From Bacteroidota bacterium (GTDB taxonomy: Bacteria > Bacteroidota > Bacteroidia > UKL13-3), in contig CANHGM010000018.1 of NCBI GenBank assembly GCA_947460345.1, forward strand, positions 1-59,530: a DNA stretch of 59,530 nucleotides. The letters run 5' to 3'. Shown here in pieces: positions 1,125-41,832 of the stretch. Below the pieces are notes generated by a model, which was not told where the DNA came from, did no database searches, and saw only the letters and a list, made by a program, of their open reading frames with translations. A program made the translations under genes and the position numbers. Positions within the stretch are counted from its first letter, which is position 1, and each line of letters opens with the position of its first letter.

Positions 1125-1868
1125 ATGAAGAAAGGTATATACCTTTTATTATTGATCACTTTAATTGCGTCATGCATTCCTAAAAAGGAATTTTATTATT
1201 TTAATAAAAAAGCTAAGACAAATACAAAAGATTCAATTTTTGAAAGAATAGAATCTGTTGAAATACCCTCTCACACTTTGTCTTCAGGCGATGAAGTTGA
1301 GATTGAAATAAATCCCATTAATATTATTGTTGACAGAAGTCAAAACGAAAAGGATATTAAAAAGCCTACATATATTGTTAATCAAACAGGATTTATCACT
1401 TTACCAATTTTAGGGAATATAAATGTAACAGGCTATACCACAAAAGCTTTACAAGATACCTTATTAAAAGTATATTTAAAATATTACAAAGAACCATACG
1501 TATCAGTTAACTTTAAATCATTCAAAGTGGTATTAATGGGTGAGGTTAGAAGACCAGGAACTATAACTATTCTAAATGACCATGCATCTTTGATAGATGC
1601 CATAAGTTTGGCTGGAGATTTAACAGACGATGGAAAACGTATTAATGTAAAGGTTTTTAGAAAAGAAAACAACAATTCTTATAAAGAATATATTGTTGAT
1701 TTGTCATCTATCTCTGCATTTAAATCAGATGCTTTTTATTTAAGAAGCAATGATATTGTGTATGTTTCTGCAATTAATGCTAAAAGATTATATTCAAGAA
1801 TTCAAATTGCTACTATTGCTGCAACTTCTCTTAATCTATTAATTTCAATTATTTCTCTAAAAAAATAA
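1125..1868 (+). CDS. Wza-like polysaccharide export lipoprotein
   Basis: This is an outer-membrane channel component for export of capsular or exopolysaccharide. A lipoprotein signal peptide ends in LIASC, with the lipidated Cys at residue 17. A poly_export domain spans about residues 50-150 (HTLSSGDEVEIEI, PILGNINVTGYTTKALQDTL), followed by an SLBB-like segment (VVLMGEVRRPGTITI, SLIDAISLAGDLTDDGKR). The C-terminal 25 residues are hydrophobic, as in the membrane-spanning helix of Wza. At 247 residues it is short, typical of Bacteroidota Wza proteins with one SLBB. It is the first gene of the operon; the kinase gene starts 3 bases after its stop. Confidence 0.9.
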   Translation: MKKGIYLLLLITLIASCIPKKEFYYFNKKAKTNTKDSIFERIESVEIPSHTLSSGDEVEIEINPINIIVDRSQNEKDIKKPTYIVNQTGFITLPILGNINVTGYTTKALQDTLLKVYLKYYKEPYVSVNFKSFKVVLMGEVRRPGTITILNDHASLIDAISLAGDLTDDGKRINVKVFRKENNNSYKEYIVDLSSISAFKSDAFYLRSNDIVYVSAINAKRLYSRIQIATIAATSLNLLISIISLKK

Positions 1869-1870
1869 AC

Positions 1871-4426
1871 ATGTCGAGTCAAGAAGATTCTCTCACATCA
1901 GGTATAAGTTCTAAATATAGTTTTAGACCCATTATATATTTAGTAATTAAAAATTGGTACTTGTATGTTTTGTCTTTTGTTGTTTTCTTTGCCATTGCAT
2001 TTTTAATCAATAAATATACTACACCTACATATAATGTTAAGTGTTCTATCCTTATTAAAAACTCAAAAGGTAATACATTGCCTGGAGGTCCCAATTCACT
2101 TTTAGAAGATAAAAATCTTTCTTTTGTTAAATTATCAACAAATATTGCTGATGAAAAAGAAATTTTGACATCAAGAAGCATGATATCTGATGTATTAGAT
2201 AGGTTAGATTTTTGTTTATCTATATTTGAAATTGGTACAATTAAAACAAATGAATTATATAAAAACGCACCAATAAAAATCGAGTATAAATTATTAGATT
2301 CAACCTATCACAGCAAGTTTATTTATATAAATACTTTAAATAAAATTGAATATGAATTAACATATATTGATTCAGATAATAAATCAATTTCATTTAAATC
2401 TAAATTTAAAGATATTTTAAATACACCTATTGGACAATTTGTTATTTCACAAGCCAATAACCCCAAATATTTCAAAACAAAACATGAGTTTAAATTTAAT
2501 ATAGTTCCTAAAGAACTTTTGGTTTCAAAATATACTGGAATATTAAAGTTAAAAAACATTAAAGAAACCTCAGTAATTGACATCAGCCTAGAAACTACTA
2601 ATGCTCAAAAGGCGATAGATTTTCTTGCTAAATTATGTGAAGTATATTTAGAAAAAGAGTTAGATGAAAAAAATAAAATTTCAGACAATACTTTAGATTT
2701 TATCAATACTCAACTTGAAGAGATTTCAAATTCTTTATCAATAGTTGAAGGAGATTTACAAAAGTATAGAGAAGAAAAAGGGATCATTGACATCGGTGTA
2801 GAAACATCAAGATTTGCAGAAAATTTAAATAAAAGTGAAGAAGATAAATACACTGTAGAAAACAAACTAAGCAATTTAGAATTATTATACGAATATTTAG
2901 TTTCAAAAAGAGATATTTCTATATTAGCTCCTTCTTTGTTTGGTATAGATGAGCCTTTGTTAATGCCTTTATATGTGAATCTTCAAGGACTTCAAACAAA
3001 AAAGGGCGAATTTAAACTGACTAATACAGAAAAAAACCCAACTGTTATTGCTTTAAACTATGAAATAGAACTTGCTAGAAAGAGTTTAATAGAGAATGTT
3101 TTGAATGTAAAAAAATCATTATTGAATTCAGCAAAGTCAATTGGTAAACATATCATTAAGTTTGAATCTGCTATTAAAAAAGTTCCTCAAACTGAAAGAG
3201 AACTCATTTCAATTAAAAGAAAATTTACTTTAAGCGAAAATATATATATATATTTACTGCAAAAGAAAGCAGAACTTGGCATCACAAAATCTGCTAACTT
3301 AACTGACAATAAGGTTCTTGAAACTCCTTATTTGTTAGGCAAAACAGCTCCTAACAACAGTCAAAATAATATTATAGCTTTTGTTGCTTCTTTATTAGTG
3401 CCTTCTGTAATTATATATTTAATTAATATGTTGGACGACAAAATAAGAAATAGATTTCAAATTGAAAGATCATCTTTAGTTCCTTTAATTGGTATTATAA
3501 GTCATAATTTTAAAAAGACTAACTTAGTAGTTAAAGAAAATCCAAAATCTCATATCGCTGAATCTTTTAGATCTATTCGAACAAATTTGCAGTTTTTAGC
3601 AAGTGATGTAGATAAAAAAGTAATATTGGTTACTTCTACAGTCGGAGGAGAAGGGAAATCGTTTTTCTCAACCAACTTAGCCTCTATTTTTGCCTTTGGT
3701 GATAAAAAAGTCATATTAATAGGTCTTGATTTAAGGAAACCAAAATTATATTCTGATTTTAAAACAGGTAATGATTTTGGGATGACCAATTACTTGATAG
3801 GAAAAGCATCATTAGATGAGATAGTTTTTAATACTGAAATTGATAATCTAGATTTTATACCTGCAGGACCAATTCCTCCAAATCCATCTGAATTAATCAG
3901 TAGTGAAAAACTACCATTTTTACTTGAAAAATTAAAAGAAACATACGATTATATAATATTAGATACTCCGCCATTAGGTTTGGTAACTGACGCAGCATTG
4001 TTAATGGATTATAGCAATATTAATTTATATGTGATGCGTGAAAATTATTCTAGACTTAATTATATCCAATCTGTTAATGGTATAGTAGAAACAAGAAGGT
4101 TAAAAAATACATGTATCGTTCTAAACGATTCAAACATTTATTCAAGTTCTTATAGATATGGATATAGTTATGGCTCAGGCTATGGCGGCTATGGCGGCTA
4201 TGGCGGCTATGGCGGCTATGGCGGCGGCTATGGTGGCTATATTTCAGGCTATGGTGGCTATGGTGGCTATGGTGGCTATGGTGGCTATGGTGGATATGGC
4301 AGCTATGGTTATGGTGCCGGCTATGGCTATTATGAAGAAGATGACAAACCTAAAAGCTTACTCTCTAAAATTGGAGATTTCTTAAAAAAATCACTTAATA
4401 TAAATACTAAAAAAATAAAACAATAA
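1871..4426 (+). CDS. Wzc-like polysaccharide co-polymerase / tyrosine autokinase (BY-kinase)
   Basis: This inner-membrane protein couples polysaccharide chain-length control to a cytoplasmic tyrosine kinase. It has a Wzz domain with a membrane helix near residues 27-48, a long periplasmic coiled-coil region, a second helix near 503-523, then the kinase. Kinase motifs seen: Walker A GGEGKS with K596, Walker A' in LIGLDLRKP with D620, and Walker B in IILDTPP with D698. The C-terminus carries about 23 Tyr within some 75 residues, built on a GGY repeat; this replaces the usual short Tyr cluster that is autophosphorylated. It ends in a basic segment. A 14-base AT run near 3240-3253 encodes IYIY. 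The dehydrogenase gene starts 3 bases downstream. Confidence 0.93.
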   Translation: MSSQEDSLTSGISSKYSFRPIIYLVIKNWYLYVLSFVVFFAIAFLINKYTTPTYNVKCSILIKNSKGNTLPGGPNSLLEDKNLSFVKLSTNIADEKEILTSRSMISDVLDRLDFCLSIFEIGTIKTNELYKNAPIKIEYKLLDSTYHSKFIYINTLNKIEYELTYIDSDNKSISFKSKFKDILNTPIGQFVISQANNPKYFKTKHEFKFNIVPKELLVSKYTGILKLKNIKETSVIDISLETTNAQKAIDFLAKLCEVYLEKELDEKNKISDNTLDFINTQLEEISNSLSIVEGDLQKYREEKGIIDIGVETSRFAENLNKSEEDKYTVENKLSNLELLYEYLVSKRDISILAPSLFGIDEPLLMPLYVNLQGLQTKKGEFKLTNTEKNPTVIALNYEIELARKSLIENVLNVKKSLLNSAKSIGKHIIKFESAIKKVPQTERELISIKRKFTLSENIYIYLLQKKAELGITKSANLTDNKVLETPYLLGKTAPNNSQNNIIAFVASLLVPSVIIYLINMLDDKIRNRFQIERSSLVPLIGIISHNFKKTNLVVKENPKSHIAESFRSIRTNLQFLASDVDKKVILVTSTVGGEGKSFFSTNLASIFAFGDKKVILIGLDLRKPKLYSDFKTGNDFGMTNYLIGKASLDEIVFNTEIDNLDFIPAGPIPPNPSELISSEKLPFLLEKLKETYDYIILDTPPLGLVTDAALLMDYSNINLYVMRENYSRLNYIQSVNGIVETRRLKNTCIVLNDSNIYSSSYRYGYSYGSGYGGYGGYGGYGGYGGGYGGYISGYGGYGGYGGYGGYGGYGSYGYGAGYGYYEEDDKPKSLLSKIGDFLKKSLNINTKKIKQ
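4181..4303 (+). repeat. In-frame 9-bp tandem repeat encoding the Tyr-Gly-Gly tail
   Basis: A run of TATGGNGGN units lies inside the kinase gene. The first block (4181-4228) uses TATGGCGGC four times and then a 12-base variant. The second block (4229-4303) uses mostly TATGGTGGC and is interrupted once by an ISG insertion. The 9-base unit keeps frame, so copy-number changes would lengthen or shorten the tail without breaking the protein. The block is much more GC-rich than its surroundings. Confidence 0.9.
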
Positions 4427-4429
4427 GTT

Positions 4430-5722
4430 ATGAATTATGATATTTTAGTTAAAAAAGAAAGTTCAATTGCTGTAATTGGTTTAGGTTATGTAGGTTTACC
4501 TATTGCTTTAGAATTTGCAAGAAAATTTAAAGTTATCGGATTTGATATCAATCAATCTAGAATTGATTTGATGAAAAAAAATATTGATCCAAGCAATGAA
4601 TTAGACAGTAGTGATTTTGAAGGATGCGATATTAAATTTACATCAGATTTAGAAGACTTGAAAACATCAACTTTTTTTGTAGTTGCTGTTCCAACACCTA
4701 TAGATGAGCACAAAAACCCTGATTTAAAACCTTTGTTAAGTGCTTCTAAAACAGTAGGGAAAGTTTTAAAGAAAAATGATATAGTAGTATTTGAATCTAC
4801 TGTTTATCCAGGATGTACTGAAGAAGATTGTGTCCCAGTTTTAGAAAAACTATCAGGATTAAAGTTTAATATAGATTTTGAAGTAGGGTATTCGCCTGAA
4901 AGAATCAATCCTGGCGATAAAGAGCACACCTTAACTAAAATAAGGAAGATTGTTTCAGCGAGTTCAAAAAATTCACTTGAAATTGTATCAAAAGTTTATG
5001 GTTCTATTATCACCGCAGGCATATATGAAGCAACAACAATTAAAGTAGCTGAAGCTGCTAAAGTTATTGAGAATACACAAAGAGATGTAAATATTTCTTT
5101 AATGAATGAGTTGTCTTTGATATTAAATAAAATGAATATCAATACATATGATGTATTAGAAGCAGCCGGAACCAAGTGGAATTTCCTGAAATTTTTTCCG
5201 GGTTTAGTTGGAGGGCATTGTATAGGAGTTGATCCTTATTATTTAACATACAAAGCTGCTGAAATTGGTTATCATTCAAAAGTAATCATGGCAGGCAGAA
5301 GTACTAATGATGCTATGGGTGGACATATTGCAAGACAAATAATTACACAGCTGATTCAAAAAGAAAAGAATATTAAGAAATCTAAAGTGTTAATAATGGG
5401 AGCTACTTTCAAAGAAAATGTTTCTGATATAAGGAACTCTAAAGTAGTTGATATCATAAATGAACTTAAGTCTTTTTTTATAAATGTAGAAGTTTCTGAC
5501 CCTAAAGCTGATAGCGATGAGTTACAACATGAATATGGATTTAGCTTAGTGAATAACTTAGCAAATGACTATGATGCAATTGTTGTTACGGTTAACCATA
5601 ATGAATATTCTAATTTGAATGAAGACTATTTTAAATCAATTATGAAAAGTGATGGTATTTTATATGATGTTAAAGGAATATATAGAAAATCTATCTCAGA
5701 ACTAACCTACTTAAGTTTATAA
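4430..5722 (+). CDS. UDP-sugar 6-dehydrogenase (TviB/WbpO-like)
   Basis: It oxidises a UDP-hexose or UDP-N-acetylhexosamine to the uronic acid for polysaccharide synthesis, using two NAD+. The N-terminal Rossmann motif is VIGLGYVGLPIA. The catalytic Cys264 lies in GGHCIGVDPYYLTYKA, preceded by KFFPGLV; this form is typical of the TviB/WbpO branch, which acts on UDP-GlcNAc or UDP-GalNAc, rather than of plain UDP-glucose dehydrogenase. The C-terminal UDP-binding domain (MGATFKENVSDIRNSKVVDI) is complete, and 430 residues is the usual length. Substrate is inferred, not proven. The last base of its stop is the A of the next gene's ATG. Confidence 0.9.
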   Translation: MNYDILVKKESSIAVIGLGYVGLPIALEFARKFKVIGFDINQSRIDLMKKNIDPSNELDSSDFEGCDIKFTSDLEDLKTSTFFVVAVPTPIDEHKNPDLKPLLSASKTVGKVLKKNDIVVFESTVYPGCTEEDCVPVLEKLSGLKFNIDFEVGYSPERINPGDKEHTLTKIRKIVSASSKNSLEIVSKVYGSIITAGIYEATTIKVAEAAKVIENTQRDVNISLMNELSLILNKMNINTYDVLEAAGTKWNFLKFFPGLVGGHCIGVDPYYLTYKAAEIGYHSKVIMAGRSTNDAMGGHIARQIITQLIQKEKNIKKSKVLIMGATFKENVSDIRNSKVVDIINELKSFFINVEVSDPKADSDELQHEYGFSLVNNLANDYDAIVVTVNHNEYSNLNEDYFKSIMKSDGILYDVKGIYRKSISELTYLSL

Positions 5723-6765
5723 TGTCTAAAATATTAGTTACAGGTGCAGCAGGATTTGTTGGTTACCATATGGTAAAAAAGTTGCTTGCCCAAGGCTATG
5801 AAGTTGTAGGATTTGATAATCTAAATACATATTACTCAGTTAAGTTAAAATATGATAGATTAAATGAATTGGGGATTGTATATCATTCTCAAAAGAATGA
5901 ATATTTTAATCAATCTTTTGATTTTTATCATGGAAGTTTAGAGAATAAAGAATTGATATTTAGTATTTTTGAAAAATATAACTTTGATTATGTAATACAT
6001 CTTGCTGCTCAAGCTGGGGTAAGGTATTCATTAGAAAATCCGCAAACATATATAGATAGCAATATTACAGGGTCATTAAATATACTAGAAGCTTGTAGGA
6101 CATATAAACCTAAACACTTAGTATTTGCTTCTTCTTCTTCAGTATATGGTTTAAATACTGTTTATCCATTTAACGAAAACCATTCTACAGATCATCCCAT
6201 TTCATTATATGCAGCTACTAAAAAAGCAAATGAAATGATGGCACATACTTATGCTCATTTGTTTCAGTTACCTGTAACAGGTTTGCGTTTTTTTACAGTT
6301 TATGGCTCTTGGGGTAGACCTGATATGGCTCCTATTTTATTTGCTAAGAATATTTTGAACCGAAAACCTATTCAGGTATTTAATAATGGTGAAATGTATA
6401 GAGACTTTACTCACGTTTCTGATATAACTGAATCTATTTTAAGACTTTTACCTGTTAGTCCGAAGATCAATACCTCACAGAATACTGATTCACTCCCTTC
6501 ATCTGAAAGTTCGGCTCCATATAAGATATTTAATATTGGGAACAATAATCCCATTAAGTTAATTGATTTTATAACTGAATTAGAGAATGCACTTGGTGTT
6601 GAAGCAATTAAGGAGTATAAAGAAATTCAACCAGGCGATGTGGTAAAAACTTTTGCTGATTCTTCTTCGCTTTATAAGGCAATAGATTTTAAACCTACTA
6701 CTTCACTTAAAGATGGTATTCAAGAGTTTGCTTCATGGTTTAAGACATATCATGGTACCATTTAA
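5722..6765 (+). CDS. NAD-dependent sugar-nucleotide C4-epimerase (CapI / UDP-glucuronate 4-epimerase type)
   Basis: A short-chain-dehydrogenase epimerase acting on the product of the preceding dehydrogenase, for example uronate to galacturonate. Seen: the Rossmann motif VTGAAGFVGYHM, FDNLNTYY as in CapI-type enzymes, a Ser-rich SSSSVYG, and the catalytic YxxxK (Y163, K167) in YAATKKANE. TVYGSWGRPDMAP also fits this family. Length 347 is normal. It overlaps the dehydrogenase by one base (TAATG), so the two are probably translationally coupled. It is the last gene of the operon; no flippase, polymerase or glycosyltransferase follows. Confidence 0.88.
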   Translation: MSKILVTGAAGFVGYHMVKKLLAQGYEVVGFDNLNTYYSVKLKYDRLNELGIVYHSQKNEYFNQSFDFYHGSLENKELIFSIFEKYNFDYVIHLAAQAGVRYSLENPQTYIDSNITGSLNILEACRTYKPKHLVFASSSSVYGLNTVYPFNENHSTDHPISLYAATKKANEMMAHTYAHLFQLPVTGLRFFTVYGSWGRPDMAPILFAKNILNRKPIQVFNNGEMYRDFTHVSDITESILRLLPVSPKINTSQNTDSLPSSESSAPYKIFNIGNNNPIKLIDFITELENALGVEAIKEYKEIQPGDVVKTFADSSSLYKAIDFKPTTSLKDGIQEFASWFKTYHGTI

Positions 6766-9836: not shown

Positions 9837-11060
9837 ATGTTAAAGTTAAGATTTGCAGCACTATGTATATTAGTTGCTCTTAAAAGTCAAGTGTCATCTC
9901 AAATAATTACCCATGAAGATTCGCTGGCGGCAGGTCTTCAAATTAAAGGGAACAGAGCTACAGCTATATCTGGTTATGGTGAAATTGTATATAATCAAGA
10001 TTTTAAAACCAAAACAGGTAAAACGGATTTGAGAAGAAATATATTATTTTTAGGTTATAGATACAATGATAAGTTAACTTTTTTTTCGGAGATGGAACTC
10101 GAACACGCCAAAGTAGAATCAGGGGCACCTTCAGGTGAAATTAGTATGGAACAATGTTTCATCAAATTTGATGTCAACAGATTAAATTATATAGTTGCTG
10201 GTTTATTTATTCCTAGAATTGGTATCATCAATGAAAACCACTTGCCAACCACTTTTAATGGTAACGACAGACCCATGACCGAAAGGATGGTTATCCCAGC
10301 TACATGGAGAGAAATTGGCGTGGCTTATTATGGTCAAACTAGAGCCATACCGGGTTTAAATTATAATGTATCATTAATGAACGGACTAGATGCTCAAAAC
10401 TTTACATTAGAAACAGGTATTAGAGATGGAAGAGGAGAAGGTTCTTTGGCCAGCTCGAGGCAAAAAGCCATACATGCTTCAGCATTATATTTTTATGGAC
10501 CATGGCGAATACAAGCCTCGGGTTTGGTTGCTGGTAGTATTGGATTAGACAATAAAAATGCTGACTTTGTTGGGTTAAACACAGGATGGATGGGAACAAC
10601 TGTATATCTTGGCGATTTTAATGTTCAATATAGAAAAAAAGGATTGACTATTAAATCATTGGTTTCATATGTTTCAATACCAGAAGCAGAGAAAATAATT
10701 ACTGCTTATGCAAACAATGTAGCAACTGCATATATGGGAAGTTATATAGAAATTGCAAAAGATATTTTATATAAAAAACATAATGGTTCTAAACAGTTCA
10801 TACCATTTGTAAGATATGAATATATAGACATGAATCTTTCACTATCAGCTAAAGCCATTGAAAATAAGTACTATACCCAAAACCATATATTTGCAGGTTT
10901 TACATATATGCCCGCTAGAGGTGTAGCAGTGAAGCTAGATTACCACTATATAGCTAATGGTGAGTTTAATCAAAGACTTATAACTGTTCCTGAACCATTG
11001 GCTAGACCCTATTACACACAACAGCATTTTATGAATTTAGGGGTTTGCTATTCATTCTAA
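9837..11060 (+). CDS. Outer-membrane porin-like beta-barrel protein
   Basis: A 407-residue barrel with an N-terminal signal peptide (cleavage near SQVSSQ). It has alternating amphipathic strands throughout, for example TDLRRNILFLGYRYNDKLTFFSE, given here only as a strand example, and a final strand ending in Phe (MNLGVCYSF). Features such as SGYGEIVYN, FSEMELEHA and GLFIPRIGIINENH resemble the phosphate-selective or OprP-like porins found in Bacteroidota. It is first in a close-packed operon, with the Rieske gene 9 bases downstream. Its probable task is passage of the ion or small ligand handled by the periplasmic proteins of the operon; the ligand is not known. Confidence 0.75.
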   Translation: MLKLRFAALCILVALKSQVSSQIITHEDSLAAGLQIKGNRATAISGYGEIVYNQDFKTKTGKTDLRRNILFLGYRYNDKLTFFSEMELEHAKVESGAPSGEISMEQCFIKFDVNRLNYIVAGLFIPRIGIINENHLPTTFNGNDRPMTERMVIPATWREIGVAYYGQTRAIPGLNYNVSLMNGLDAQNFTLETGIRDGRGEGSLASSRQKAIHASALYFYGPWRIQASGLVAGSIGLDNKNADFVGLNTGWMGTTVYLGDFNVQYRKKGLTIKSLVSYVSIPEAEKIITAYANNVATAYMGSYIEIAKDILYKKHNGSKQFIPFVRYEYIDMNLSLSAKAIENKYYTQNHIFAGFTYMPARGVAVKLDYHYIANGEFNQRLITVPEPLARPYYTQQHFMNLGVCYSF

Positions 11061-11069
11061 AAGATATAT

Positions 11070-11504
11070 ATGAAATTAAGTAGAAGAAGTTTTTTATCTA
11101 ACAGTTGTAAATCGTGTGGAGCCATGATGCTTGCAGGAACAATTGCAAGTACACTAGAATCGTGTAATACATTAGCCGTATATAAAACCAGTTTAAACAA
11201 TAACGAAATTTTGGTTCCGGTGGCTGAAATGCTTGACATACAAAGAAAAATTATAAGAGCCAGCAATTTAGAATATGACATTTTATTGGTCAAAAAAACA
11301 GAAGCCCTTTATACAGCCATGGTATTAAAGTGCACACATGAAGATTGGTTATTATCTGCAGGAGAAAAATCAATTAATTGTACAGCACATGGGAGTGTAT
11401 TTGATTTTGATGGAAAAGTACTAGTGGGCCCTGCTATTAACCCATTGACCATATTGCAAACACATATAAATCAAACCAATATTCATATAAAAATAAATAA
11501 CTAA
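11070..11504 (+). CDS. Rieske [2Fe-2S] protein with Tat-type signal
   Basis: A small exported electron-transfer protein. The N-terminus has a twin-arginine signal (SRRSFLS) and then a hydrophobic stretch. The cluster ligands are clear: C88-T-H90 and C104-T-A-H107, separated by 13 residues, followed by GSVFDFDGKVLVGPA as in Rieske folds. It is 144 residues, a Rieske domain only. It is not next to cytochrome b or c1 genes, so it is not the bc1-complex subunit. It sits between a porin and an imelysin gene, and its stop shares a base with the imelysin start. Electron transfer to or from the di-heme protein of the same operon is an inference. Confidence 0.88.
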   Translation: MKLSRRSFLSNSCKSCGAMMLAGTIASTLESCNTLAVYKTSLNNNEILVPVAEMLDIQRKIIRASNLEYDILLVKKTEALYTAMVLKCTHEDWLLSAGEKSINCTAHGSVFDFDGKVLVGPAINPLTILQTHINQTNIHIKINN

Positions 11505-12556
11505 TGAAAAAATTTGTATATATAATAATTGGCATCTTCTTAGTTGGTTTTCAACAATGCAAAAAAAACAAAACAGTTGACAAAAGTGTTGAAATAGCAA
11601 ATGAAATACTATATGATTTTCCTTCAAAAGTTTTAATTCCAAACTTATATCAATTAAATCAAGAAGCAAAGAATTTGTTATCATCTGTTGAAATTTTTGT
11701 AAATAAAAGTGATGAATCTAATTTGAATACAGCACAGAATGCATGGTTGAAAACTAGGGTTGAATGGGAAAAATCAGAAGCTTGTTTGTTTGGACCAGTT
11801 TCTACGCTAAACTTAGATCCTGCTATAGATTCATGGCCTGTAAACTTTGTTGAAATTGATTCGGTCATTAAAGGTAGCATAAGTTTTTCGGATACTTATA
11901 TTGATAATTTAGCAAACACATTAAAAGGTTTTCATTGTATTGAGTATATGTTGTTTGGAAAAAGTAAATCAAGAAAAGCTTCAGATTTGACAACAAAACA
12001 AAAAGATTATTTGGTTGCAGTAACCAAACATTTAAATCGAATTACATTTCAAATGCATCATGAGTGGATTGAAACGGGGAATAATTTTTCTCAAAATATA
12101 ACCTTAGCTGGAACAAAATATAGTATATATAAAACCAAAAGAGAAGCTTTGTTAGAAATTACTAAAGCCATGAGTGAAATTATAGCTGAAGTTGGATTAA
12201 GTAAAATTGATGCACCATTTGCAGCACAAGACTCTACACTAGAAGAATCACCATTTGCATTAAACTCATGGCAAGATTTTAAAAACAATATATTAGGAGC
12301 AAGAAATGTATATACATCTTCAAGTCATAATGGCGTTCAGAAATTTGTAACAGAATATAACAAATCATTAGATGCGACTATCCTTCAAAATTTTGATATA
12401 TGTTTAAAATCTATAGATTCGTTTAAAGAACCATTTGGAAGAAGTATATACTCTCAACCCGCAGCTGTTCAATCGTTGCAGTCACAATTGTCGGCTTTGA
12501 GGTATAATTTAGAAAGTGAATTGGTGCGTTTAATTGAAGCAAAAATTATTGAGTAA
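11504..12556 (+). CDS. Imelysin-family (M75) periplasmic lipoprotein
   Basis: Imelysin-like proteins are linked to iron uptake (IrpA/EfeO relatives), and most are thought to bind rather than cut substrate. Seen: an N-terminal signal with a likely lipid Cys in GFQQC, the conserved WP region (DSWPVNF), and the hallmark GxHxxE motif in GFHCIEYMLFG (H144, E147). Helical repeats fill the rest; the length of 350 fits the family. It overlaps the Rieske stop and the di-heme gene start by one base each (TAATG). Co-location with a di-heme oxidoreductase is a known arrangement for this family, supporting an iron role. Confidence 0.88.
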   Translation: MKKFVYIIIGIFLVGFQQCKKNKTVDKSVEIANEILYDFPSKVLIPNLYQLNQEAKNLLSSVEIFVNKSDESNLNTAQNAWLKTRVEWEKSEACLFGPVSTLNLDPAIDSWPVNFVEIDSVIKGSISFSDTYIDNLANTLKGFHCIEYMLFGKSKSRKASDLTTKQKDYLVAVTKHLNRITFQMHHEWIETGNNFSQNITLAGTKYSIYKTKREALLEITKAMSEIIAEVGLSKIDAPFAAQDSTLEESPFALNSWQDFKNNILGARNVYTSSSHNGVQKFVTEYNKSLDATILQNFDICLKSIDSFKEPFGRSIYSQPAAVQSLQSQLSALRYNLESELVRLIEAKIIE

Positions 12557-13938
12557 TGATTAAAAATATATATAGCTTTTTTGTTGTTTTATTTTTAATT
12601 TCAATTATATATGCTTGTAGGCAATCTAAACCTTTTGATAGTGATGAATATAATGAGGTTTTTACTGCAGATTATCACACGGCGATAGATGATGGTGCTG
12701 GTGCTTATGCTCATCCATTAATTGGATTGTCGGCAAGAGAAGAAGCCTTTCATGATTTAGGCGATGGTTTTTTTGAAACCAATTTTGTTCCAAACCAAGC
12801 TAACTATCATGCCAGTGGCTTAGGTCCTTTATATAATAATATTAGTTGTGTTAGTTGTCATCCATCAGATGGGAGAGGAAAAGCACCATTACCTGGAGAA
12901 GTAATAAACTCAATGTTATTTAAATTGGCATTATCAGGACTTGACAGCAAAGGATTTCCTAACAAAGTACCTGGCTTTGGTGGGCAGTTACAAGACAAAG
13001 CAATTATAGGATCTGCTATTGAAGGGAAAGTTGATGTTCAATATATTGAAAGTAATTTTCAATTTCCAGATGGTGAAACTGTAAAACTAAGAAAACCAAT
13101 ATATACACTTACCAATTTGTATCAACCCATTTCTTCGCAAGTGATTGTATCCCCAAGACTTGCTAGGCCTGTATATGGTGTAGGTTTTTTAGAATCTATC
13201 AGTGAAGAAAGTATATTAAAAAATGTTGACGAAATGGATGTAGATGGGGATGGTATTTCGGGCAAAGCAAATTATGTATATGATTTTGTGAATAATAAAG
13301 AAAAAGTGTTGGGAAGAATTGGCTGGAAAGCATCAGTAGCTAATATCAAAAGCCAAGTGACTAGAGCTTTAAACGAAGATATTGGTATTACTAGTTCAGT
13401 TGTTCCAGATGAACAAATAAAAGGACAAATACAAGAACCCAATTCTTCAGGTATTGAATTGCCTGACTCAATTGTTGATGCCTTAACTTTTTATATTAGA
13501 ACTTTAAGTGTTCCTGCTAGAAGGGATGTTAAGAACCAACAAATCATCCAAGGTAAAAAATTGTTTAGCATTGCTGGATGTGCCAGCTGCCATACCCCAA
13601 ACCATCAAACAGAAATAAACCCTGCATTTAAACCACTTTCAGGATTAAATATATTTCCATATACTGATTTGTTATTGCATGATATGGGGTTAGACTTAGC
13701 TGACGGATTTAGTGAATTTGAGGCCAAAGGCAATGAATGGAGAACGCCACCATTATGGGGTATTGGGCTAACACAAAAAGTAAATGGACATAATAATTTT
13801 TTACATGACGGCAGAGCCCGCAATTTTACAGAAGCCATATTGTGGCATGGAGGAGAAGCCATAAAAGCTAAAACAAAATTTGTAAATTACACTAAAAATG
13901 AAAGATTGGCTTTGATTAAATTTTTAGAAAGCTTATAG
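12556..13938 (+). CDS. Di-heme oxidoreductase (DUF1111, cytochrome c peroxidase-like) lipoprotein
   Basis: A periplasmic protein with two covalent c-type hemes. The lipobox ends at Cys21 (IIYAC). The heme sites are C98-V-S-C101-H102 (SCVSCHPSDGRGK) and C342-A-S-C345-H346 (CASCHTPNH). RTPPLWGIG and FLHDGRARNFTEAILWHGGEA near the C-terminus are typical of DUF1111. In other bacteria this family neighbours imelysins in iron-regulated operons, where a ferrous/ferric oxidoreductase role is suspected. Its one-base overlap with the imelysin gene indicates tight co-expression. A role in redox of iron delivered through the upstream porin is inference. Confidence 0.9.
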   Translation: MIKNIYSFFVVLFLISIIYACRQSKPFDSDEYNEVFTADYHTAIDDGAGAYAHPLIGLSAREEAFHDLGDGFFETNFVPNQANYHASGLGPLYNNISCVSCHPSDGRGKAPLPGEVINSMLFKLALSGLDSKGFPNKVPGFGGQLQDKAIIGSAIEGKVDVQYIESNFQFPDGETVKLRKPIYTLTNLYQPISSQVIVSPRLARPVYGVGFLESISEESILKNVDEMDVDGDGISGKANYVYDFVNNKEKVLGRIGWKASVANIKSQVTRALNEDIGITSSVVPDEQIKGQIQEPNSSGIELPDSIVDALTFYIRTLSVPARRDVKNQQIIQGKKLFSIAGCASCHTPNHQTEINPAFKPLSGLNIFPYTDLLLHDMGLDLADGFSEFEAKGNEWRTPPLWGIGLTQKVNGHNNFLHDGRARNFTEAILWHGGEAIKAKTKFVNYTKNERLALIKFLESL

Positions 13939-39103: not shown

Positions 39104-41800
39104 CTATAACTCATTTTTTGTACTCTTTTCTAACCTCTCAGTTCCAAATTCTAATATGCTATCAATAAAGTCATAGGGCTTATAACCTTCTAAAGCACAT
39201 TGGTGAAAAATGCAGGTAGCTGGCGTCATTCCTGGTAAACTGTTTACTTCTATAATGTTTACTTCCACATCACTTTTATTATATACTTTTACAAAAGCAT
39301 CTATACGAGCATAACCTTCTACTTTTAATAATTTGGCTGCTTTTTTCAGTTCTTGCCTCACCAATTTAGATATATGTTTTTGCACTTTTTTATCAGGATT
39401 ATATCTAGCTGGGGTTATGTTTTGTCCTTCTCCTGCCAAGAATTTTTCCTCTAAACTTAAAATAGCTCCATCTGCTAATGTTTCAGACGGTTCAAACATT
39501 TCATATTTTATATGACCGTCTTTGTCATATTTAGTAAGCAAACCACCTGTGATTTCTAAGAAATGAGAATGGTTGCTCTTTTCAATTAATTTCTCTATCA
39601 AAAAATAATCTTTCTGTGGAAACTCTTCTTTGGGTTGTAGTTTTAATAGTTCAACTGCATCAGCTGGCAATGTTTCTTTTTCTCTAAACATGGCTTTGGC
39701 AAATGCTTTAAGTTCTTCATTGTTGTTTAGTTTTTTTACTGCACTGCTACAGCCATCATCAGCGGGTTTGGCTATTAACGGAAACCCAATGCGGGTATCT
39801 ACCAATGTCATTTGCGTTTTTGCATCTGATGCCCAATCTTCTTTCTTTATAATCATACTCTCAGCCACTATAAAGCCATGGTTTCTGAGTATATTATTGG
39901 TGTCGTATTTATTAATGGTTGTTTTAGAACTTTCAACGCCTGAGCCATTAAAAGGCAACTGTTGTTTGATTAGCAATTTTTGAATTTCTCCATCTTCTCC
40001 CGGTCTGCCGTGCAATGCTATAAATACTCTATCAGCAATTTCTGAAAGTTCGTTAGTTTTTATTTTTATAGGTTTAAAATGGGCTTGTGGTCCTGCATAT
40101 TTTTCAGTGATGCTTTTACATGCTTCTTTAATTTCTTCTAAAACCGGGTGTATTTTAAAATGATTGATTTTCTCTCTGATATCATCTGCATTGTCTTTAA
40201 GCATAATGTTTACAGGTATCTGCCACAACTCAAATTTCTTATCGTTGCCAGTTAAGAAAATAGGGGTAGGTATATATTTACTACTAGATGAAAGTTTCTC
40301 ATATATATTTCTGCCACTTTCAACGGATATATGTCTTTCGCTGCTATATCCGCCCATTATCACCGCAACTCTTATTTTATTTTGAGCAGACTCGTTGTTT
40401 TTTTGTATATAATGGTCAAGTAGTTTTAATAGTCTAATACATTGGTGGTTGTTTGCCCATTCTTTGCCTCTTTGGTCTAAAGACGTGCGAATGATATATG
40501 TTAAAAACTGTGATGGGTTTAATCCAATTTCAGCTGCTTGATGAAAGAAAAAAGACGATGGCATCATTCCGCTAGTGGTATTCGGGTCGTTTAGGTATAT
40601 AGTCCCGTCATCACTTATAAAACCATCTATTCTAGCATATACTTTACAACGCATCAAGTTAAACAATTCACTGCATTGTAATCTGATTTCATGTATATAT
40701 TTTTTGTCAATATCTATTGGGGTAACTTTTCTCGAAAGACCCGGTAAGTATTTGCTGCGGTAATCAAAAACTTCTTTGTTCTTAACTATTTCAGTGGGTG
40801 GTAAAGCTATTGGTTGATTGTGCTCATCTTGAATCACAATGCATGAAAATTCTTTCCCACTGATAAATCCTTCAACAATAACTTCATGTTCTGTGTTTAC
40901 AGCTTCTAAAACTATTTCTTGATTTAATACAAAATGTTTTTCTAATAACTTATATAAATCTTCAGGATGATGAATTGTTTTGTCAATTGCTAATACGGGC
41001 ATTCCCAAGCCTTCACGTATATCAGCTAACGAACGTATATATTTTATTTTTTCATCAACAGTATATGCGTCCCATTCTTTTTTAGTAATTTTTTTAGTAA
41101 AAAATGCATGGTCAATTGATTGCTCAAAAGCTGAGAAATTATTGCTATCAACTACACTGATACCTATGCTTGAACCTTGATTGGCTGCTTTTACCACACA
41201 AGGAATACCCACTGTTTCAATACATTTTTTATATATTTCTTTTTGCTTTGCTAAGCCGCTATTCCATGAGGCTCTTTCAATGGTATAATATTTTGGAGTG
41301 GCAAATCCTGCCATTTGTTGTAATGGCTTTTGTACTGCTTTGTTAATGCCAATAGTAGATGCAATAATACCTGAACCACTATAAGGAATACCAAGCCATT
41401 CTAATAAACCTTGTATGGTGCCGTCTTCAGCTTTTTGTCCGTGTAGGGCAAGAAAAGCAAAATCTATAAGTTCTCTTAATTGCTCTAATTTTATAGGTTT
41501 CCCAATTTCTTTTAATAAATCTGCTTGTACCTCATGCGATATATTCCCAATACTTTCAGCATAAATCTGAAAACCATGTTTTGAAGGAGCAATGGCATCT
41601 AAAGGTGGATAAAAATCTCTAATTGAACCTTTGTATATATACTGCCAATCTAATAAACATATATTTCCCCATGAGTCAACAAATAAAGGAATGGCTTCAA
41701 ATAACGATTTGTCTAAGTTGTCATATACTGTTCTACCTCCTGCAAAAGATACTTCTCTTTCTCTAGAAACGCCTCCAAAAAAAATACCTACTTTAATCAT
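39104..41800 (-). CDS. Tandem (double) D-alanine--D-alanine ligase
   Basis: An 898-residue protein made of two Ddl/ATP-grasp units, against about 310-360 residues for a usual Ddl. The first unit begins VGIFFGGVSREREVSFAGG and has FLALHGQKAEDGTIQGLLE. The second begins VAVIMGGYSSERHISVESG and has FIALHGRPGEDGEIQKLL. The second keeps the canonical metal/product motif EVNSLPGMTP; the first has a diverged form NDPNTTSGMMPSS. So the second is the safer catalytic unit and the first may differ in substrate or be structural. It should supply D-Ala-D-Ala for peptidoglycan in the cytoplasm. Start at 41800: a TAAATTTG -7 element at 41825-41832 overlaps an upstream ATG at 41827. Confidence 0.87.
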   Translation of the reverse strand: MIKVGIFFGGVSREREVSFAGGRTVYDNLDKSLFEAIPLFVDSWGNICLLDWQYIYKGSIRDFYPPLDAIAPSKHGFQIYAESIGNISHEVQADLLKEIGKPIKLEQLRELIDFAFLALHGQKAEDGTIQGLLEWLGIPYSGSGIIASTIGINKAVQKPLQQMAGFATPKYYTIERASWNSGLAKQKEIYKKCIETVGIPCVVKAANQGSSIGISVVDSNNFSAFEQSIDHAFFTKKITKKEWDAYTVDEKIKYIRSLADIREGLGMPVLAIDKTIHHPEDLYKLLEKHFVLNQEIVLEAVNTEHEVIVEGFISGKEFSCIVIQDEHNQPIALPPTEIVKNKEVFDYRSKYLPGLSRKVTPIDIDKKYIHEIRLQCSELFNLMRCKVYARIDGFISDDGTIYLNDPNTTSGMMPSSFFFHQAAEIGLNPSQFLTYIIRTSLDQRGKEWANNHQCIRLLKLLDHYIQKNNESAQNKIRVAVIMGGYSSERHISVESGRNIYEKLSSSSKYIPTPIFLTGNDKKFELWQIPVNIMLKDNADDIREKINHFKIHPVLEEIKEACKSITEKYAGPQAHFKPIKIKTNELSEIADRVFIALHGRPGEDGEIQKLLIKQQLPFNGSGVESSKTTINKYDTNNILRNHGFIVAESMIIKKEDWASDAKTQMTLVDTRIGFPLIAKPADDGCSSAVKKLNNNEELKAFAKAMFREKETLPADAVELLKLQPKEEFPQKDYFLIEKLIEKSNHSHFLEITGGLLTKYDKDGHIKYEMFEPSETLADGAILSLEEKFLAGEGQNITPARYNPDKKVQKHISKLVRQELKKAAKLLKVEGYARIDAFVKVYNKSDVEVNIIEVNSLPGMTPATCIFHQCALEGYKPYDFIDSILEFGTERLEKSTKNEL

Positions 41801-41824
41801 ATGCTTTTTCAAAATAATGTATGG

Positions 41825-41832
41825 CAAATTTA
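41825..41832 (-). promoter_or_regulatory. -7 element of the tandem Ddl gene
   Basis: TAAATTTG on the minus strand, 24 bases before the ATG at 41800. It decides against the ATG at 41827, which would fall inside the promoter. Confidence 0.4.

What the first reader, a model, noticed from the sequence alone, without database searches (positions are those of the whole stretch)
4181..4335. Tyr-Gly-Gly tandem-repeat tail on a Wzc-type kinase, in two codon-marked blocks
BY-kinases normally end in a cluster of a few Tyr that are phosphorylated to switch oligomer state. Here about 23 Tyr sit on a GGY repeat encoded by 9-base units. One block uses GGC-GGC, the next GGT-GGC, indicating two separate rounds of amplification. 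Slippage would change Tyr number in frame, giving a tuneable kinase tail that could set capsule amount or chain length. The GGY pattern also resembles low-complexity phase-separating sequences.
Basis: partly seen in the sequence, partly recalled or inferred. Interest (0 to 1): 0.65.

Follow-up and report, generated by a model that had tools for sequence, protein, structure and literature searches.

The report
Amplified Tyr-Gly-Gly tail on Wzc kinase
A Bacteroidota capsule-export tyrosine kinase carries an unusually long, recently re-amplified tyrosine/glycine repeat tail, a length-variable and differently spaced version of the phosphorylated tail that such kinases normally have, which makes it a natural test of whether tyrosine number and spacing tune sugar-polymer export.

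Summary
ORF 1871-4426(+) is an 851-aa PCP-2a/Wzc BY-kinase with intact catalytic motifs; residues 755-851 form a tail with 23 Tyr and 33 Gly. Eleven Y-G-G units fall into codon-marked blocks (5x TATGGCGGC; 1+4x TATGGTGGC plus one GGT-GGA). The coordinates given hold 18 Tyr, not about 23.
Tyr/Gly-rich tails are standard in Bacteroidota BY-kinases: 104 distinct tails sampled have 4-26 Tyr, and (YG)5Y occurs in 61/395 genomes. The uncommon feature is spacing of 3: (YGG)4Y occurs only here in 395 sampled genomes, while the usual spacing is 2 (YxY). In 46 of 50 testable tails synonymous codons are scrambled, pointing to old repeats kept at peptide level; this one is DNA-homogeneous, so recently amplified. 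Relatives vary in copy number (8 vs 17 Tyr at 98% core identity).
Most likely mechanism: multi-site autophosphorylation tail of an octamer-monomer switch, with proximal and distal YxY clusters joined by a slippage-prone GGY spacer/substrate. Phosphorylation and tuning are inferred. The acidic Tyr pocket (Wzc E675) is not conserved in this lineage. Precedents: Wzc Y-tail, pneumococcal CpsD (YGX)4. New variant of a known kind.

The parts
1871..4426 (+). wzc-type PCP-2a BY-kinase, 851 aa (Wzz domain, kinase domain, Tyr/Gly tail)
   Evidence: Pfam Wzz and AAA_31; NCBIfam TIGR01007 eps_fam 1.2e-49 over cut-off; PDB Wzc 7nhr 1.2e-44; AF2 model matches CapAB/Wzc kinase folds
3560..3580 (+). ExxRxxR oligomerisation motif, residues 564-570 (ESFRSIR)
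   Evidence: first Glu and Arg of the motif invariant in 104 relatives
3647..3661 (+). Walker A GEGKS (residues 593-597), Lys596 aligned to Wzc K540
3722..3742 (+). Walker A' GLDLRKP (residues 618-624); first Asp replaced by Gly, as in most Bacteroidota sampled
3956..3973 (+). Walker B ILDTPP (residues 696-701)
4061..4063 (+). Tyr731, aligned to the Tyr-pocket residue E675 of E. coli K30 Wzc
   Evidence: Glu at this place in Etk and CapB1/CapB2
4142..4174 (+). proximal YxY cluster SSSYRYGYSYG (residues 758-768), resembling the start of the E. coli Wzc tail
4181..4225 (+). block 1: five TATGGCGGC (Y-G-G) units
4229..4237 (+). single TATGGTGGC unit before the YISG interruption (4238-4249)
4250..4294 (+). 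block 2: four TATGGTGGC units and one TATGGTGGA
4295..4333 (+). distal mixed cluster YGSYGYGAGYGYY (residues 809-821), partly spacing 2
4334..4345 (+). acidic EEDD after the last Tyr pair; recurrent in relatives
4358..4393 (+). predicted amphipathic basic C-terminal helix ('foot'), residues 830-841
   Evidence: AF2 helix, pLDDT about 62; hydrophobic moment P = 0.043
1125..1868 (+). wza/OPX outer-membrane polysaccharide export protein
   Evidence: Pfam Poly_export and SLBB
4430..5722 (+). nucleotide-sugar dehydrogenase (TviB-like)
5722..6765 (+). NAD-dependent nucleotide-sugar epimerase
   Evidence: the four-gene order is kept in G052 and G032-G034

Best explanation
This is the C-terminal autophosphorylation tail of a Wzc-type tyrosine kinase that switches a polysaccharide co-polymerase between an octamer (unphosphorylated tails docked in the neighbour's active site) and dissociated subunits. 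In the Bacteroidota lineage the tail is a Tyr/Gly repeat with a short acidic-then-basic amphipathic end. In this genome the middle of the tail has recently been rebuilt by in-frame tandem amplification of a 9-bp TAT-GGN-GGC unit in at least two rounds, giving Tyr spacing 3 between a proximal and a distal YxY cluster. I expect the YxY clusters to be the preferred docking and phosphorylation sites, and the GGY stretch to be a flexible, length-variable spacer carrying extra, lower-affinity phosphoacceptors. Shown: gene identity, catalytic motifs, the repeat and its codon blocks, conservation of Tyr/Gly tails, length variation between relatives, predicted disorder. Inferred: phosphorylation, octamer cycling, division of labour between clusters, effect of repeat number on polymer output.
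For: Kinase identity and fold; equivalents of Wzc E508, R511, K540, D564, R566 and D642 invariant in 104 of 104 relatives and present here. Tyr-bearing, mostly Gly-rich tails in all 104 distinct sampled tails; the 37 (YG)5Y places whose coordinates I could compare all lie in BY-kinase genes. Scrambled synonymous codons in 46 of 50 testable tails argue for selection on the peptide; homogeneous, blocked codons here argue for recent amplification. Tail length changes faster than the core: 13 close pairs show 27 residues net change in 726 tail residues against 4 gap columns in about 8,800 core residues; 20 of the 27 come from L031/L019. Tail predicted disordered, pLDDT about 30. The genome has LMW-PTP and CpsB/PHP-type phosphatases and wza next to wzc. 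Literature: octamer/monomer cycling and control by extent of phosphorylation (PMC8285477, PMC11986026), oligomerisation control by the tail in VpsO (PMC7485978).
Against: No phosphorylation or phenotype data for this protein. GGY spacing does not satisfy the i-2 (YxY) pocket rule of the published ratchet, and the pocket Glu (E675) aligns to Tyr731 here and to Phe/Tyr/Met in 87 of 104 Bacteroidota kinases sampled, so details of the E. coli mechanism may not transfer. The phosphatase genes lie on other contigs, so their pairing with this kinase is a guess. Length differences come mostly from draft assemblies, where repeats can collapse.
Confidence: 0.62

Rival explanations
1. Contingency (tuning) locus: slippage of the 9-bp units changes Tyr number within populations and so sets capsule amount or chain length.
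For: Near-perfect 9-bp units in two codon blocks; copy number differs between a 98%-identical pair of kinases, 8 vs 17 Tyr; a second tail with two codon blocks, L085.
Against: 8 of 13 close pairs have identical tail length; 46 of 50 testable tails have scrambled codons that would damp slippage; no strain or read data; no link to output measured. In E. coli about four phosphorylations already dissolve the octamer (PMC11986026), so extra Tyr may be redundant.
Confidence: 0.15
2. Neutral low-complexity drift: the tail only has to be a flexible Tyr-bearing linker; GGY versus GY is a mutational accident without effect.
For: Composition and length vary widely across relatives while Tyr richness stays; spacing-3 majority tails arose at least twice (L001, L047).
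Against: Tyr and Gly are kept across the phylum under codon scrambling; spacing 2 is the commonest in 84 of 104 tails; GGY is kept in sister L003 with scrambled codons, so it has persisted.
Confidence: 0.17
3. The Tyr/Gly low-complexity tail forms condensates or clusters that concentrate export complexes.
For: Composition resembles Tyr/Gly-rich phase-separating sequences (general knowledge); predicted disorder.
Confidence: 0.06

Closest known systems
E. coli Wzc (PCP-2a BY-kinase) tyrosine-rich tail
   Same: Single-chain Wzz + BY-kinase, intact Walker motifs and ExxRxxR, Tyr-rich C-terminal tail beginning with a similar SSxYRYG stretch, wza neighbour
   Different: Tail about 97 residues with 23 Tyr against about 20 residues; mostly spacing 3 in the middle; Tyr-pocket Glu E675 replaced by Tyr; Walker A' first Asp replaced by Gly; extra C-terminal amphipathic helix
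Streptococcus pneumoniae CpsD (YGX)4 repeat
   Same: Tyr-Gly repeat with Tyr spacing 3 as the tail of an autophosphorylating BY-kinase (title of ref. 18 in PMC4574921)
   Different: CpsD is a separate cytoplasmic kinase with a membrane partner CpsC; four repeats rather than eleven YGG units; no DNA-level amplification blocks known to me
Bacteroidota Wzc/Ptk1-type kinases with (GY)n tails
   Same: Direct relatives; Tyr/Gly tails with acidic-basic ends; P. gingivalis Ptk1 has a Tyr-rich cluster and autophosphorylates (PMC4082711)
   Different: Mostly spacing 2 with scrambled codons; (YGG)4Y only in this gene among 395 sampled genomes, and in sister L003 (G052) outside that sample
Vibrio cholerae VpsO
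   Same: Amount and position of tail phosphorylation control oligomerisation and polysaccharide output (PMC7485978)
   Different: Six tail Tyr, no repeat

Membership tests
Wzc / PCP-2a BY-kinase | N-terminal Wzz domain plus C-terminal BY-kinase domain in one chain | tested here: met
Wzc / PCP-2a BY-kinase | Walker A Lys, Walker A' second Asp, Walker B Asp, ExxRxxR | tested here: met
   first Asp of Walker A' is Gly, as in 84 of 104 relatives
Wzc / PCP-2a BY-kinase | Tyr-rich C-terminal tail | tested here: met
   23 Tyr in residues 757-821
Wzc / PCP-2a BY-kinase | Polysaccharide export neighbour (wza/OPX) | tested here: met
Wzc / PCP-2a BY-kinase | Tyrosine autophosphorylation | not testable with these tools
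   needs an assay; active-site residues intact only
Wzc YxY ratchet (PMC11986026) | Tyr at i-2 throughout the substrate tail | tested here: not met
   11 of 22 Tyr intervals are 3 and 5 are 2; YxY only in flanking clusters
Wzc YxY ratchet (PMC11986026) | Acidic pocket residue E675 | tested here: not met
   Tyr731 here; Phe/Tyr/Met at 87 of 104; Glu in K30 Wzc, Etk, CapB1, CapB2
CpsD-type (YGX)n tail | Tandem Tyr-Gly-X repeat as kinase tail | tested here: met
   11 YGG units
CpsD-type (YGX)n tail | Split kinase / membrane activator pair | tested here: not met
   single 851-aa chain
Contingency (slippage) locus | Repeat number varies within a species | not tested
   only one genome of the genus held; between-genome variation seen in relatives only
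Phase-separating low-complexity domain | Condensate formation | not testable with these tools
   only predicted disorder

The most novel reading that the evidence does not exclude
Bacteroidota BY-kinases use a different tail-docking rule from E. coli Wzc: the acidic Tyr pocket is lost, and long Tyr/Gly repeats of variable number and spacing act as a counting tail whose repeat number, changed by in-frame slippage, sets polymer output; the window gene is a lineage caught just after such an expansion with a switched spacing (3 instead of 2).
Probability: 0.13. Interest if true: 0.68.

Novelty: new variant of a known kind. Interest (0 to 1): 0.42.

Why it matters
How the number and spacing of tail tyrosines control the octamer cycle of capsule co-polymerases is an open question worked on mainly in E. 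coli with a handful of Tyr. Bacteroidota supply natural variants from 4 to 26 Tyr, with spacing 2 or 3, and a near-identical pair differing 8 to 17 Tyr, on a kinase whose pocket lacks the acidic residue that the ratchet model relies on. That makes the model directly testable across lineages.

Tried and rejected
Chance low complexity: rejected by run length and codon statistics. Tail of many Tyr as unique: rejected by the census. Pseudokinase: rejected, catalytic residues intact. Paralogue duplication: only one full BY-kinase in the genome; the other match is a weak P-loop hit. The named-genome scan found 14 relatives only; they were used as the alignment for folding. DNA alignment A1 took the wrong end of the loci because those loci are not turned to the match strand; it is replaced by the tail DNA. 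No paper in the library was found that pairs 'YGYGYG' with bacterial tyrosine kinases (one unrelated hit). The original CpsD (YGX)4 paper is not held, so only its title is cited.

Full report
WHAT IS THERE. The reading frame 1871-4426(+) encodes an 851-aa protein with a Wzz domain and a BY-kinase domain, closest by sequence to solved Wzc and CapAB. It is the only full BY-kinase found in the 3.0-Mb genome. It sits in a tight four-gene set: wza/OPX (1125-1868), wzc, nucleotide-sugar dehydrogenase (4430-5722) and epimerase (5722-6765). The same four genes in the same order occur in G052 and G032-G034, which are also the relatives sharing GGY elements in the tail. In E. coli, Wzc phosphorylates the UDP-glucose dehydrogenase Ugd (PMC2516531), so the neighbouring dehydrogenase is a possible second substrate (inference).

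THE TAIL. From residue 755 the tail reads NIYSSSYRYGYSYGSG-(YGG)5-G-YGG-YISG-(YGG)5-YGSYGYGAGYGYYEEDD and ends in a basic, amphipathic stretch. Codons: five TATGGCGGC units, then TATGGTGGC units, segregated more than chance (P = 0.002). GGC makes 22 of 33 Gly codons against 16% in other genes of the window (P = 1.4e-10), and all Tyr are TAT. AlphaFold2 gives a confident kinase domain, a tail at pLDDT about 30 over residues 758-828 and a C-terminal helix at 830-841 with modest confidence (residue numbers converted from the construct, which starts at residue 517). The kinase model matches CapAB and Wzc structures.

HOW COMMON. I collected 104 distinct BY-kinase tails from the family and the phylum. 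All bear Tyr and nearly all are Gly-rich; Tyr number runs from 4 to 26 with a median of 12. Spacing 2 is the commonest interval in 84 tails and spacing 3 in only two, the window and a Cytophagales MAG (L047). Among 395 Bacteroidota genomes the pattern (YG)5Y occurs in 61 and (YGG)4Y only in the window; the closest relative outside that sample, G052 (L003), also has a run of YGG. For 37 (YG)5Y places in genomes present in both searches I compared coordinates by eye: all lie in or directly at the end of BY-kinase matches. So a long Tyr/Gly tail is a lineage trait; the GGY run is the local variant.

AGE OF THE REPEAT. In 46 of 50 tails with enough repeats, neighbouring units share codons no more than permuted ones, so the DNA repeat has decayed while the peptide repeat stayed. 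L003 carries the same GGY peptide with mixed codons (16 GGT, 14 GGA, 10 TAC). The window, L035, L018 and L085 are the exceptions; L085 also shows two codon blocks (GGC then GGG). I read this as an old peptide design repeatedly refreshed by local tandem amplification, most recently here.

COPY NUMBER. L019 and L031 kinases are 98% identical with no gap in 700 core residues, but have 61 and 41 tail residues, 17 and 8 Tyr; the DNA shows a clean in-frame difference of 20 codons. Over 13 close pairs, five differ in tail length: 27 residues net in 726 tail residues against 4 gap columns in about 8,800 core residues, though one pair supplies 20 of the 27. These are draft genomes, and collapse of repeats in assembly is possible. 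Within-species data were not available: the genus has one genome.

MECHANISM. In E. coli, the tail of one protomer enters the next protomer's active site; phosphorylation proceeds from the C-terminus, each step places the i-2 Tyr in a pocket containing E675, and after about four phosphorylations the octamer falls apart (PMC8285477, PMC11986026). A 2026 study of the K-12 protein found many different site combinations rather than one order (PMC12881504). In V. cholerae VpsO, tail phosphorylation controls oligomerisation and output (PMC7485978). The catalytic residues needed are intact here and invariant in 104 relatives. Two points differ. First, GGY gives spacing 3, which cannot satisfy the i-2 rule except in the flanking clusters (761-767 and parts of 812-821). 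Second, E675 aligns to Tyr731; the relatives have Phe, Tyr or Met at 87 of 104, while Etk, CapB1 and CapB2 have Glu like K30 Wzc. So either the Bacteroidota pocket works differently or spacing is less constrained. A spacing-3 repeat is not without precedent: the CpsD tail of S. pneumoniae is called a (YGX)4 repeat domain (title of ref. 18 in PMC4574921; the paper itself is not held). My best reading is that the YxY clusters do the docking while the GGY stretch lengthens the tail and adds acceptors. Phosphatases of both known types exist elsewhere in the genome, but pairing is a guess.

VERDICT. Observation confirmed; interpretation partly supported. It is a member of the Wzc/BY-kinase family by every feature testable here, and a new variant in tail spacing and recent amplification. 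Tuning of capsule by slippage and phase separation remain possible but untested.

Noticed in passing
L085 tail (G015:C24): A (YG) tail in another kinase of the family also has two codon blocks (GGC run, then GGG run), an independent case of codon-marked amplification.
   Followed up: partly
window 3722-3742 and relatives: Walker A' first Asp (Wzc D562) is Gly in 84 of 104 Bacteroidota BY-kinases sampled, including this one; the second Asp is invariant.
   Followed up: partly
L091, L092, L094, L095, L097, L106, L107 tails: A separate tail style, YYGGGGYYYYGGYY with many adjacent Tyr pairs, in part of the same family.
   Followed up: no
window 39104-41827 (-): 907-aa protein with more than one match each to D-Ala-D-Ala ligase N- and C-terminal domains, possibly a tandem fusion of two ligases.
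   Followed up: no
window 11070-13938: Adjacent Rieske protein, imelysin (M75) and di-haem oxidoreductase genes, downstream of a protein at 9837-11060 without a Pfam match.
   Followed up: no
window 1125-6765: The wza-wzc-dehydrogenase-epimerase set seems to stand without glycosyltransferases directly beside it, also in L120, so the rest of the polysaccharide pathway probably lies elsewhere.
   Followed up: partly
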